Assembly: GCA_023700985.1 (NCBI GenBank)
Contig: JAMPXV010000005.1
Coordinates: forward strand, 1 to 35,766
DNA from: Lysobacter sp.
GTDB lineage: Bacteria; Pseudomonadota; Gammaproteobacteria; Burkholderiales; Usitatibacteraceae
Direction: 5' to 3'
Length of the DNA stretch: 35,766 nucleotides
The notes beneath the pieces are model-generated. The model saw only the letters and a program-made list of their open reading frames with translations. It did not search any database and had not been told where the DNA came from. This document shows, one piece after another, positions 1 through 15,952 of this stretch. Every line of letters begins with the position of its first letter. Position 1 is the stretch's first letter. The translations under genes and the position numbers were made by a program.

Positions 1-106
1 ACCCGTTCGCCGCTCGCCGCCAGGTTGCCCCGCGCTGCCGCTCGACTTGCATGTGTAAAGCATTCCGCCAGCGTTCAATCTGAGCCAGGATCAAACTCTT
101 CAGTTC
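1..106 (-). rRNA. rrs: 16S ribosomal RNA, 5' end (partial)
   Basis: The minus strand reads the conserved 16S start AGAGTTTGATCCTGGCTCAG (complement of about 82-101), followed by the ATTGAACGCTGGCGG block and the ACACATGCAAGTCGA segment before V1. The gene runs off the left edge, so only about the first 100 bases are present. The mature 5' end near 106 is set by comparison with known betaproteobacterial 16S starts and could be off by a few bases. The helix sequence around ATGCTTTACACATGC is typical of Betaproteobacteria. Confidence 0.95.
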
Positions 107-13660: not shown

Positions 13661-15139
13661 TCATGCGGCGGGGGCGTCGAGCCCCGCGTTGGTGGCCTCG
13701 GCGGCCGCGAGGAGCGCGCGCGCCTTGTTGCGCGTCTCCAGCCACTCCTGCTCCGGGATCGAGTCCGCGACGACCCCCGCCGCGGCCTGCACGTGCAGCT
13801 CGCCCGCCTTCACGACGCCGGTGCGGATGGCGATGGCGAGGTCGAGGTTGCCGTTGAATCCGAGGTAACCCACGGCGCCGGCGTATACGCCGCGCCTTTC
13901 GGGCTCGAGCTCGTCGATGATCTCCATCGCGCGCACCTTCGGCGCGCCGGCCACCGTCCCGGCCGGGAAGGTGGCGCGCAGGAGCTGCATGGGCGTGAGG
14001 GAGGGGTCCACCTCGCCCTCCACGTTGGAGACCATGTGCATCACGTGCGAGTAGCGCTCCACCGCCATCCGCTCGGTCACGCGCACGGTGCCGATGCGCG
14101 CGATGCGGCCGATGTCGTTGCGGCCGAGGTCGATCAGCATCAGGTGCTCGGCCCTTTCCTTGGGATCGTTCACGAGCTCGCGCTCCATGGCGAGGTCCTT
14201 CTCCGGGGTGGCGCCGCGCTTGCGCGTGCCGGCGATGGGTCGCACCGTGACCGTGTCGGCCTCGCGCCGCACGAGGATCTCGGGGGAAGCCCCCACGAGC
14301 TGGCTGTCGCCGAAGTCGAAGTAGAACATGTAGGGCGACGGGTTGATGGAGCGCAGCGCCCGGTAAAGATTGACCGGCGAGCCCGCGAAGGGCTGCGTGA
14401 GGCGCTGCGAGACCTGCACCTGCATCACGTCGCCGTCGGTGATGTAGCGCTTGGCCTTCGCCACCGCGGCGTAGAAGGCCGCCTCCCCGATGTTGGACCG
14501 GGGGACCGGCGGCGCGGCCACGGGGACGTGCACGGGCAGCTTCGCCGCGCCGCGCAGCCTTCCGCGCAGGGATTCGAGCCGGGCGCGGGCGCGGGCGTAC
14601 GCATCCGGCTCGCGCGCGTCGGCGTAGACGATCAGGTGCACCTTGCCGGCGATGTTGTCGACGACCGCGAGCTCCTCCGAGAGGAGCAGGCGCACGTCGG
14701 GCAGGCCGATCGGGTCCGGGCGCGCGTCGCGGGCGAGCTTGGGCTCGATGTAGCGCACGGTGTCGTAGCTGAAGTAGCCCGCGAGCCCGCCCGCAAAGCG
14801 CAGGTCGGAGGCGAGAGGAGCGGCCGCCACGCGCTTGAGGTACTCGTCCACGAAGGCGAGCGGGTCGCCCGCGTCGCGCTCCTCGGCGACCACGCCGTCG
14901 CGGATGACGCGGCCGCGGTCGCCGGCCACCTCGATGCGCTCGCGCGCGGCCAGCCCGATGATCGAGTAGCGGCCGAACCGCTCGCCCCCGATCACCGACT
15001 CCAGGAGATAGGTCCCCGGCGCGTTGGCGAGCTTGAGGTAGAGCGAAAGCGGGGTGTCGAGATCGGCGAGCGTCTCGAGGGTCAGGGGGATCCGGTTGAA
15101 GCCGGCGCGGGAAAGCGCCAGGAATTCTTGCTCAGTCAT
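13661..15139 (-). CDS. trpE: Anthranilate synthase component I
   Basis: TrpE makes anthranilate from chorismate and is usually the feedback-controlled step. The 492-residue protein carries the LLES motif (45-48), part of the tryptophan inhibitor site, so feedback inhibition is likely. It also has the chorismate-binding core with [19 protein letters not shown] and AGTVAGAPK. The ATG at 15137-15139 has no clear Shine-Dalgarno sequence. It is preceded by a short Trp-rich reading frame (15188-15238), which points to translation- or structure-based control. Confidence 0.97.
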
Positions 15140-15187
15140 GTTTCACCACACGGTATTCGAGTCGAAGGGCGGTCGGGCGGGACGCTT

Positions 15188-15238
15188 TCAGCGCCAGCTT
15201 TGCCATCGCCAGTCGAGCAGGAATCCGCGCGGTGCCAT
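15188..15238 (-). CDS. trpL: Candidate tryptophan leader peptide upstream of trpE
   Basis: A 16-codon frame reads MAPRGFLLDWRWQSWR and ends in TGA, 48 bases before trpE. Three of its last seven residues are tryptophan, as in known trp leader peptides. It lies inside the only gap between gph and trpE, about 34 bases after a -10-like TACAAT (complement of 15279-15284). The leader stop codon lies in a 6-bp stem-loop (GGCGCT-GAA-AGCGTC). I see no room for a classical attenuator with a T-run before trpE. A second frame of 24 codons (15132-15206) overlaps the trpE start in another phase. The frame could be chance, but position and Trp content argue against that. Confidence 0.6.
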   Translation of the reverse strand: MAPRGFLLDWRWQSWR

Positions 15239-15268
15239 GATGAGTGTCTCGGGGAGAGTTCTCGGTGC

Positions 15269-15952
15269 CTAGGCCGCCATTGTAATCGATCTGACGGCCT
15301 CTTCCACGCTCGCCACGACGGCGTCCGCCCCGAGGTCGTCGAGCGACAGGCCCTCGCGATAGCCGTACGGGACCACCACGACGGGGCAACCGGCGGCGCG
15401 CGCGGACTGCACGTCGTTCAGCGAGTCGCCGACCATCAGCGTCTCGCCCGGGGTCGCCCCCAGCGTCCGGGCGGCGAAGAGCATCGGGTCGGCGTGCGGC
15501 TTCTTGCGCTCGACCGTGTCGCCGGAGACGACCACGCCGAAATAGCGCCGCAGCCCCGTGAGCTCGAGGAGCGGCTCGGTGAAGCGCCCCGCCTTGTTGG
15601 TGACCACGCCCATCGCGATGCCGGCGCGCTCCAGCGCCTTCAGCCCGTCGACCACGCCGGGGTAGGGTCGCGACCGGTCCGCGATGCCGGCGATGTAGTG
15701 CCGCTCGAAGCTCTCCATCGCACGGCGGCGCTCCTCGTCGGACCCGCCGCCGGTCGCCTCGAAGCACCGGCTCACCAGGTTCACCACGCCCTTGCCGATG
15801 TAGTCGCGGATCCCGTCCTCCGGCAGGGGCGGGCGGCCGAGGTCGGCGAGCATGCGGTTGGCCGCCGCCGCGAGGTCCTGGGCCGTGTCGACGAGCGTGC
15901 CGTCGAGGTCGAAGAGCGCGGCGCGGTAACGCCTCTGCAGCACGGCCGCCAT
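15269..15952 (-). CDS. gph: Phosphoglycolate phosphatase (HAD family)
   Basis: Gph removes phosphate from 2-phosphoglycolate formed in DNA repair. The 227-residue HAD protein has the nucleophile motif DLDGT (D15, D17), the helical cap domain, the VVTNK motif, ERKKPHADP with the conserved lysine, and the GDSLND acidic motif. I chose the ATG at 15950-15952, spaced well from a GGGGG site; a GTG at 15958 overlapping the rpe stop is the alternative. Order rpe-gph-trpE is a common proteobacterial arrangement. Confidence 0.93.
   Translation of the reverse strand: MAAVLQRRYRAALFDLDGTLVDTAQDLAAAANRMLADLGRPPLPEDGIRDYIGKGVVNLVSRCFEATGGGSDEERRRAMESFERHYIAGIADRSRPYPGVVDGLKALERAGIAMGVVTNKAGRFTEPLLELTGLRRYFGVVVSGDTVERKKPHADPMLFAARTLGATPGETLMVGDSLNDVQSARAAGCPVVVVPYGYREGLSLDDLGADAVVASVEEAVRSITMAA
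15279..15284 (-). promoter_or_regulatory. Possible trp operon -10 element
   Basis: The minus strand reads TACAAT within the last codons of gph. A start about 7 bases downstream would give a leader of about 130 bases before trpE, containing the Trp-rich frame. No good -35 is seen (GTGGAA at 17-bp spacing), so the site may need an activator or be incidental. Confidence 0.35.

What the first reader, a model, noticed from the sequence alone, without database searches (positions are those of the whole stretch)
15100..15290. Trp-rich leader peptide before trpE without space for a classical attenuator
The gph-trpE gap encodes a 16-residue frame with three Trp near its end (DWRWQSWR). Its stop codon sits in a 6-bp stem-loop whose 3' arm (GAAAGCG, complement of 15183-15189) can instead pair with CGCTTTC in trpE codons 8-10 (complement of 15111-15117). 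Those trpE bases also form a 7-bp hairpin (15102-15121). With only 48 bases between leader stop and trpE start, no T-run and no trpE Shine-Dalgarno site, ribosome stalling at Trp codons might control trpE translation rather than transcription end. A second short frame (15132-15206) overlaps the trpE start and could compete or couple.
Basis: partly seen in the sequence, partly recalled or inferred. Interest (0 to 1): 0.6.

Follow-up and report, generated by a model that had tools for sequence, protein, structure and literature searches.

The report
Tryptophan leader hairpin hiding trpE start
Just before the first tryptophan-making gene lies a tiny tryptophan-rich reading frame whose RNA is predicted to fold back over that gene's ribosome-landing site, so shortage of tryptophan could switch the gene on by letting ribosomes land rather than by letting transcription continue; the same layout recurs in many related bacteria.

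Summary
The leader frame is real (window 15238-15188, minus strand, MAPRGFLLDWRWQSWR*) and conserved: 22 of 23 family genomes with a readable region upstream of trpE carry one, and 102 of 168 loci of the order carry a Trp-rich frame, against 2.45 expected and 0 antisense. What is conserved is larger: the whole leader frame is the 5' arm of one hairpin whose base pairs leader codons 1-6 and their 5' flank with the trpE Shine-Dalgarno and start, the leader stop lying at the tip (-52 kcal/mol, z -5.0). In 29 chosen representatives native pairing is -25.4, shuffled -17.1 kcal/mol. Terminators are not clearly enriched (29 of 111 loci, 22 expected); TrpR was not found in 21 genomes. Best reading: Trp-codon translational attenuation. 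Weak point: in my model one stalled ribosome hardly opens the site; a second, queued one is needed. No expression data exist here.

The parts
15188..15238 (-). trpE leader frame, MAPRGFLLDWRWQSWR*, Trp codons 15211-15209, 15205-15203, 15196-15194
   Evidence: conserved in relatives
15221..15244 (-). 5' arm of the outer helix (5' flank, leader start codon, codons 2-6)
   Evidence: fold; native against swapped and shuffled partners
15131..15158 (-). 3' arm of the outer helix: trpE Shine-Dalgarno GGTGA (15147-15143), start codon 15139-15137 and codons 2-3
15190..15218 (-). 5' arm of the inner stem; spans all three Trp codons
15161..15186 (-). 3' arm of the inner stem, after the leader stop codon; the stop (15190-15188) sits at the tip
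15206..15208 (-). CGA arginine codon directly before the second Trp codon; preferred at W-R-W in relatives
   Evidence: CGA in 44 of 51 W-R-W; 46 of 112 leaders have CGA before a Trp codon, and all 12 inspected outside Burkholderiales
15279..15284 (-). TACAAT, -10-like hexamer in the last codons of gph; candidate promoter of the leader-trpE transcript (inferred)
   Evidence: sequence; -10-like hexamers upstream of leaders in 45 of 110 loci, 20 of 110 in one shuffle each; the stricter two-hexamer scan found none
13661..15139 (-). trpE, anthranilate synthase component I
   Evidence: TIGR00564
13084..13650 (-). trpG-type amidotransferase gene
   Evidence: TIGR00566
12044..13060 (-). trpD (approximate start)
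   Evidence: TIGR01245
11253..12044 (-). trpC (approximate start)
   Evidence: NF001373
15269..15931 (-). gph, phosphoglycolate phosphatase (approximate start), upstream neighbour
   Evidence: TIGR01449

Best explanation
A Trp-sensing leader peptide that controls translation of trpE. The leader RNA, when free of ribosomes, folds into one long hairpin in which the leader start region is paired with the trpE Shine-Dalgarno and start, while the Trp codons and the post-stop segment form the upper stem. The first ribosome loads on the leader before the trpE site has been transcribed. If Trp-tRNA is plentiful it finishes, leaves, and the hairpin closes over both start sites: trpE is off, and untranslated message may then be lost to Rho or decay. 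If Trp-tRNA is short, ribosomes stall at the Trp codons and, with a second ribosome queued at the leader start, keep the 5' arm occupied when the trpE site emerges: trpE is on. Shown here by computation: the conserved frame, the conserved hairpin, the paired trpE start region, no clear enrichment of hairpin-plus-U terminators, no TrpR found. Inferred: that stalling occurs, that it opens the site, the order of events and the sign.
For: Frame conserved in 22 of 23 readable family loci and far above chance. Window fold -52.0 kcal/mol, z -5.02, 0 of 200 shuffles as good; the hairpin persists in a 196-nt fold. 111 leader loci: mean z -2.88; 106 of 111 have at least 6 leader-to-trpE-site pairs; median 20 such pairs against 4 in 1110 shuffles, at least 10 in 100 of 111 against 28%. 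Native against swapped partners: 80 loci in sets chosen by me, -24.7 against -16.5 kcal/mol, and also inside five clades and one mixed set. Representatives: 29, -25.4 against -17.3 swapped and -17.1 with composition-kept shuffles, 19 of 29 with p<0.05. 11 loci outside Burkholderiales, kept by eye: -23.9 against -17.9. trpE Shine-Dalgarno window at least 60% paired in 80 of 111. Terminators 29 of 111 against 22.2 expected. TrpR in 0 of 21 genomes, E. coli control positive.
Against: In an equilibrium model a single ribosome at the first Trp codon raises mean Shine-Dalgarno accessibility only from 0.25 to 0.34, at the last Trp codon to 0.26; only with a second ribosome on the leader start does it reach about 0.50. 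Column-wise covariation is modest: 22 Rhodocyclaceae-like sequences 85.2% paired against 83.4% shuffled (2 of 500), covariation score 6 of 500, but 'pairs with a change on both sides' 269 of 500; in 9 close relatives 12 of 500 for pairing, 85 of 500 for the score and 102 of 500 for double-sided changes. 10 of 29 representatives and 7 of 11 loci outside Burkholderiales are not significant alone. The two start codons pair with each other in only 52 of 111 predicted folds. Window-level z is weak in much of the Rhodocyclaceae-like clade. Leaders mostly lack a clear Shine-Dalgarno by eye. Terminators show a small excess (p 0.07), so some lineages could use termination. G005, placed in the same genus, lacks the leader: gph overlaps trpE. 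No expression data.
Confidence: 0.55

Rival explanations
1. Classical transcription attenuation: the hairpin or a part of it is an intrinsic terminator, and the stalled ribosome favours an antiterminator.
For: A Trp leader before trpE is the classical arrangement; attenuation of trpE and trpGDC is in the title of a Pseudomonas putida paper (seen only as a reference in PMC8297930), and that paper's figure legend reports premature 3' ends beside a possible upstream frame at trpGDC of P. aeruginosa in azithromycin-treated biofilms (passages). A U-tract follows a stem in 40 of 112 loci under a lax test, e.g. L055 and L017; strict terminators 29 of 111 against 22.2, p 0.07.
Confidence: 0.15
2. Rho-dependent attenuation: after normal leader translation the C-rich segment behind the stop recruits Rho; a ribosome stalled near the stop masks it, as in tnaC of E. 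coli (recalled).
For: Post-stop segment in the window is C-rich by eye; the last Trp codon is 1-2 codons before the stop in 98 of 112 leaders, so a stalled ribosome would cover the stop.
Against: The segment is base-paired in the predicted leader fold, and a Rho site does not explain pairing of the leader with the trpE start. Not tested directly.
Confidence: 0.13
3. The leader is a translational opener: any ribosome that translates it unfolds the trpE site, so Trp shortage would not raise trpE specifically, or coupling is constitutive; compare mgtQ-mgtB in Salmonella (PMC8092293, abstract read).
For: Same geometry: a small frame inside an RBS-hiding stem.
Against: Does not explain the 2-4 Trp codons in 111 of 112 leaders, mostly at their end.
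Confidence: 0.1
4. The hairpin is a passive by-product of GC-rich sequence and trpE coding constraint; the leader acts by another route.
For: z-scores in the Rhodocyclaceae-like clade are mostly weak (about -0.6 to -2.7; exceptions L040 -4.3, L055 -4.2, L049 -3.2).
Against: Composition-preserving shuffles and partner swaps; loci without a detected leader show median 6 long-range pairs, mean z -0.83 (52 loci).
Confidence: 0.07

Closest known systems
E. coli-type trp attenuator (Rfam RF00513 Trp_leader)
   Same: Short Trp-rich leader frame before trpE; stop codon near the tip of the first stem (recalled for E. coli)
   Different: No clearly enriched terminator or U-tract; the 5' half of the leader frame pairs with the trpE start; no Rfam match at the gathering score in the window except 16S rRNA and no Trp_leader match in ten loci at E up to 5
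Translational attenuation of erm/cat resistance genes (recalled; ermB paper PMC8274638 seen in a listing)
   Same: A ribosome stalled in a leader frame is thought to free a hidden ribosome-binding site
   Different: The signal would be uncharged tRNA-Trp, not a drug; one nested hairpin spans the whole leader frame and covers both start regions
LEU element of Actinobacteria (PMC1262725, passages read)
   Same: Leader peptide codons predicted to pair with the Shine-Dalgarno of a biosynthetic gene (leuA)
   Different: There the Leu codons themselves pair with the site, a pseudoknot is predicted, and the authors doubt codon-dependent control; here the Trp codons lie in the upper stem
mgtQ-mgtB, Salmonella (PMC8092293, abstract read)
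   Same: Small frame inside an RBS-sequestering stem-loop; its translation frees the site
   Different: Acidic codons destabilise the ribosome; no amino-acid sensing described in the abstract
odc1 motif (PMC8632094, passages read)
   Same: Upstream frame associated with a stem that hides the main ribosome-binding site
   Different: Alphaproteobacterial, conserved 11-residue peptide; Trp codons not mentioned in the passages seen

Membership tests
Classical trp transcription attenuator | Leader peptide with regulatory Trp codons | tested here: met
   (that they regulate is not tested)
Classical trp transcription attenuator | Intrinsic terminator (GC stem plus U-tract) between leader and trpE | tested here: not met
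   window none; relatives 29 of 111 against 22.2 expected, p 0.07
Classical trp transcription attenuator | Antiterminator that competes with the terminator | tested here: inconclusive
Rfam RF00513 Trp_leader | Covariance-model match | tested here: not met
   window, gathering; 10 loci, E up to 5
Ribosome-stall translational attenuation | Downstream Shine-Dalgarno or start paired in the ribosome-free RNA | tested here: met
   by prediction: (Shine-Dalgarno window at least 60% paired in 80 of 111)
Ribosome-stall translational attenuation | Pairing maintained by selection | tested here: met
   column covariation only modest
Ribosome-stall translational attenuation | Stalled ribosome frees the site | tested here: inconclusive
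   weak with one ribosome, clearer with two
Ribosome-stall translational attenuation | Regulation by Trp in vivo | not testable with these tools
   needs reporters or ribosome profiling
TrpR repression as the alternative Trp sensor | TrpR gene present | tested here: not met
   0 of 21 genomes, own genome 86% complete; E. coli control positive
LEU element | Regulatory codons pair with the Shine-Dalgarno in a pseudoknot | tested here: not met
   here codons 1-6 and their 5' flank, not the Trp codons, pair with the site; pseudoknots not modelled

The most novel reading that the evidence does not exclude
A widespread, old class of trp control in beta- and gammaproteobacteria without a terminator: a one-shot RNA latch in which the leader and trpE start regions lie in the same hairpin base, so that the fate of the first ribosome (stalled or finished) sets whether the message is ever translated; a conserved CGA codon before Trp slows decoding and tunes the sensor.
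Probability: 0.3. Interest if true: 0.78.

Novelty: new variant of a known kind. Interest (0 to 1): 0.6.

Why it matters
The trp operon is the textbook case of attenuation by transcription termination. If this reading holds, many Proteobacteria, including lineages in which no TrpR was found here, sense Trp with the same kind of leader peptide but act on translation initiation, through a structure that no Rfam family matched in the loci tested. It gives a single, easily tested RNA design, with named isolates among the carriers (Dechloromonas agitata L037, Azonexus hydrophilus L040).

Tried and rejected
Second frame 15206-15132 as a coupling frame: not kept open more than a control frame. Intrinsic terminator in the window or as a rule in relatives; the 40 of 112 came from a lax test without a control. 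Rfam: nothing but 16S rRNA in the window, only below-threshold chance-like matches elsewhere. Inner stem alone: family mean z -1.33 (22 loci) with the leader arm kept and the post-stop segment shuffled, other 89 loci -0.51; native -21.6 against swapped -20.3, 111 loci: present but weaker than the outer helix. CGA explained only by base pairing: its A is paired in 29 of 47, so pairing is not the whole reason.

Papers: ten full-text searches (all that were allowed) gave listings in which I saw no title or abstract start describing this element in Betaproteobacteria. Seen: PMC4833913 first of three parts; passages of PMC8632094, PMC8297930, PMC1262725, PMC2395257, PMC3766115, PMC7755916 and PMC5343134; outline and abstract of PMC8092293. 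PMC5343134 calls the E. coli and Shewanella trp attenuators 'translational' in passing, so the word alone is no precedent. Subscription papers, among them the Pseudomonas putida one, could not be read, so novelty is not proven.

Rows dropped before counts: of 179 loci, L001 (a duplicate stretch) and L025 (too short) were left out, then 8 identical upstream sequences, leaving 169; 54 of 169 had no leader by my rule. One search used 168 of them within 150 nt of trpE. Counts on 110-112 loci keep leaders whose stop lies 30-130 nt before trpE and, where folded, stretches without N. The sets and the 29 representatives were chosen by me; they are not strictly one per family (four from f1, two from f15, three from f43, L040 and L164 from one clade, four of unknown family). 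Outside Burkholderiales 40 upstream regions were read, 19 met the two-Trp rule; 11 or 12 were kept by eye for an R-W motif near trpE, 7 dropped. Wilcoxon and binomial p-values are not corrected for kinship.

Full report
What is there. On the minus strand the window reads rpe-gph-trpE-trpG-trpD-trpC. Between the gph stop (15271-15269) and the trpE ATG (15139) lies a 16-codon frame, 15238-15188, MAPRGFLLDWRWQSWR*. The genome (319 contigs, 86% complete) is probably a betaproteobacterial MAG; the closest named record, with 98% TrpE identity, is titled 'Betaproteobacteria bacterium'.

The frame is conserved. In the GTDB family, 25 of 28 genomes gave a TrpE match at the cut-off. In 22 the upstream stretch is readable and holds a Trp-rich leader, mostly ending WRWxxWR*. 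G016 and G024 are cut off before the trpE start. G005 lacks it: its record is that of L110, and gph overlaps the trpE start. L034, with 84% TrpE identity, also shows none. Over 168 loci of the order and its closest TrpE matches, 102 carry such a frame within 150 nt of trpE, against 2.45 expected from shuffles and 0 on the opposite strand. Of 112 leaders, 98 end one or two codons after the last Trp, and 111 have two to four Trp codons.

The structure. Folding the region from leader start to trpE start gives one long hairpin: -52.0 kcal/mol, z -5.02, no shuffle of 200 as good; it persists in a 196-nt context (z -3.12). The base of the hairpin pairs 15244-15221 (5' flank and leader codons 1-6) with 15158-15131, that is, with the trpE Shine-Dalgarno GGTGA, the start codon and the next two codons. 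The upper stem spans the three Trp codons, and the leader stop is at the tip. In L006 the change GGATTC to GGTTTC in the leader is matched by GAATACC to GAAAACC before trpE. In the Rhodocyclaceae-like clade an upstream CCTC pairs with the Shine-Dalgarno GAGG, and AAATGAC at the leader start pairs with GTCATTT, so the UUUU there need not be a terminator tail.

Statistics. For 111 leader loci the mean z is -2.88, and 106 have six or more pairs between the leader 5' part and the trpE site. The median is 20 such pairs against 4 in 1110 composition-kept shuffles; 52 loci without a detected leader have median 6 and mean z -0.83. Swapping partners between loci weakens pairing from -24.7 to -16.5 kcal/mol (80 loci in sets chosen by me, p 1.3e-14, kinship not corrected); it also does so inside five clades and one mixed set (each p 0.01 or lower), a further clade of 3 loci being too small to test. 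With 29 representatives chosen by me, native is -25.4, swapped -17.3, shuffled -17.1; 19 of 29 are significant alone. The Shine-Dalgarno window is at least 60% paired in 80 of 111; the two start codons pair with each other in 52 of 111. Column-by-column covariation is only modest: 85.2% against 83.4% paired (2 of 500), covariation score 6 of 500, but double-sided changes 269 of 500; in nine close relatives 12 of 500 for pairing, 85 of 500 for the score and 102 of 500 for double-sided changes.

How far it reaches. Of 40 upstream regions from gammaproteobacteria outside Burkholderiales, 19 met a two-Trp rule. Of these I kept 11 by eye; their native pairing is -23.9 against -17.9 shuffled (p 0.001 over the set, 4 of 11 alone). 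Twelve were folded: L191, L195, L196, L202 and L212 show the same hairpin with z -3.1 to -4.5; L185, L197 and L217 are weak (z -0.4 to -1.2).

What it is not. No terminator-like site lies in the window. Strict terminator-like sites occur in 29 of 111 loci against 22.2 in shuffles (binomial p 0.07): no clear enrichment. A lax test gave 40 of 112, so single lineages (for instance L055 or L017) may terminate. No Rfam regulatory family matched the window or the ten loci tested. TrpR was found in 0 of 21 genomes while the control found it in E. coli.

Mechanism. The most likely reading is translational attenuation by Trp codons: finished leader translation lets the hairpin close over both start regions; stalling keeps it open. 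The weak step is quantitative. In an equilibrium model (111 loci) mean Shine-Dalgarno accessibility is 0.25 free, 0.34 with one ribosome at the first Trp, 0.26 at the last, 0.25 with a ribosome at the stop, and 0.50-0.51 only if a second ribosome also covers the leader start. The last Trp codon is never before codon 10 with the starts that I chose, which may leave room for a queued ribosome, but E. coli trpL is similar (recalled), so this is no proof. A kinetic version, decided by the first ribosome before the trpE site is made, is inferred.

A codon oddity. Arg in W-R-W is CGA in 44 of 51 cases, against 24 of 308 other leader Arg codons and 122 of 2908 in trpE. 46 of 112 leaders have CGA directly before a Trp codon, 66 do not (the Rhodocyclaceae-like clade among them); all 12 leaders inspected outside Burkholderiales, kept for R-W but not for the codon, have it. 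Its A is paired in 29 of 47, so base pairing is not the whole reason. A relative has tRNA-Arg(ACG) (the 30 best of 44 tRNA loci were fetched and 23 of them scanned; no TCG anticodon was seen). That CGA is read by inosine and may slow the next codon is general knowledge, not tested here.

Known work. Closest are the E. coli trp attenuator, erm-type translational attenuation, the LEU element (PMC1262725, passages read) and mgtQ (PMC8092293, abstract read). Attenuation of trpE in Pseudomonas putida is in print (title seen in a reference list; paper not held); I cannot say whether it describes this structure. Ten full-text searches of an open-licence library listed nothing that I recognised as this element in Betaproteobacteria.

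Noticed in passing
window 15208-15206 and relatives: CGA codon between or before Trp codons is strongly preferred (44 of 51 W-R-W; 12 of 12 inspected leaders outside Burkholderiales) although CGA is rare in trpE (122 of 2908 Arg); absent in the Rhodocyclaceae-like clade.
   Followed up: partly
window 15206-15132 (-): Out-of-frame ATG inside CGATGG opens a 24-codon frame that ends inside the trpE start; not conserved as a frame.
   Followed up: yes
G000 and 20 relatives: No TrpR-family protein (PF01371) found in 21 genomes.
   Followed up: partly
L023, L028: The leader-to-trpE pairing in L023 (-50 to -60 kcal/mol) is made of a near-perfect inverted ACCACAGAGACACAGAGGCACAGAG-type repeat, part of which is also in L028; it looks like a dispersed repeat (recalled, not tested).
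   Followed up: no
L019: Counted as without leader, but has a one-Trp frame MNLLEAHIFGERWR (read by eye) and a strong fold (z -4.8); perhaps a decaying or minimal leader.
   Followed up: no
L030, L146: The internal out-of-frame ATG is in frame with trpE and open, so trpE could start inside the leader.
   Followed up: no
L034: Record titled Actinomycetota carries a TrpE 84% identical to that of this betaproteobacterium; probably a mis-binned or mislabelled MAG.
   Followed up: no
L110, L250: In G005, placed in the same genus, gph overlaps the trpE start and there is no leader.
   Followed up: partly
window 1-106 (-): Piece of a 16S rRNA gene (model positions 1-107) at the contig end.
   Followed up: no
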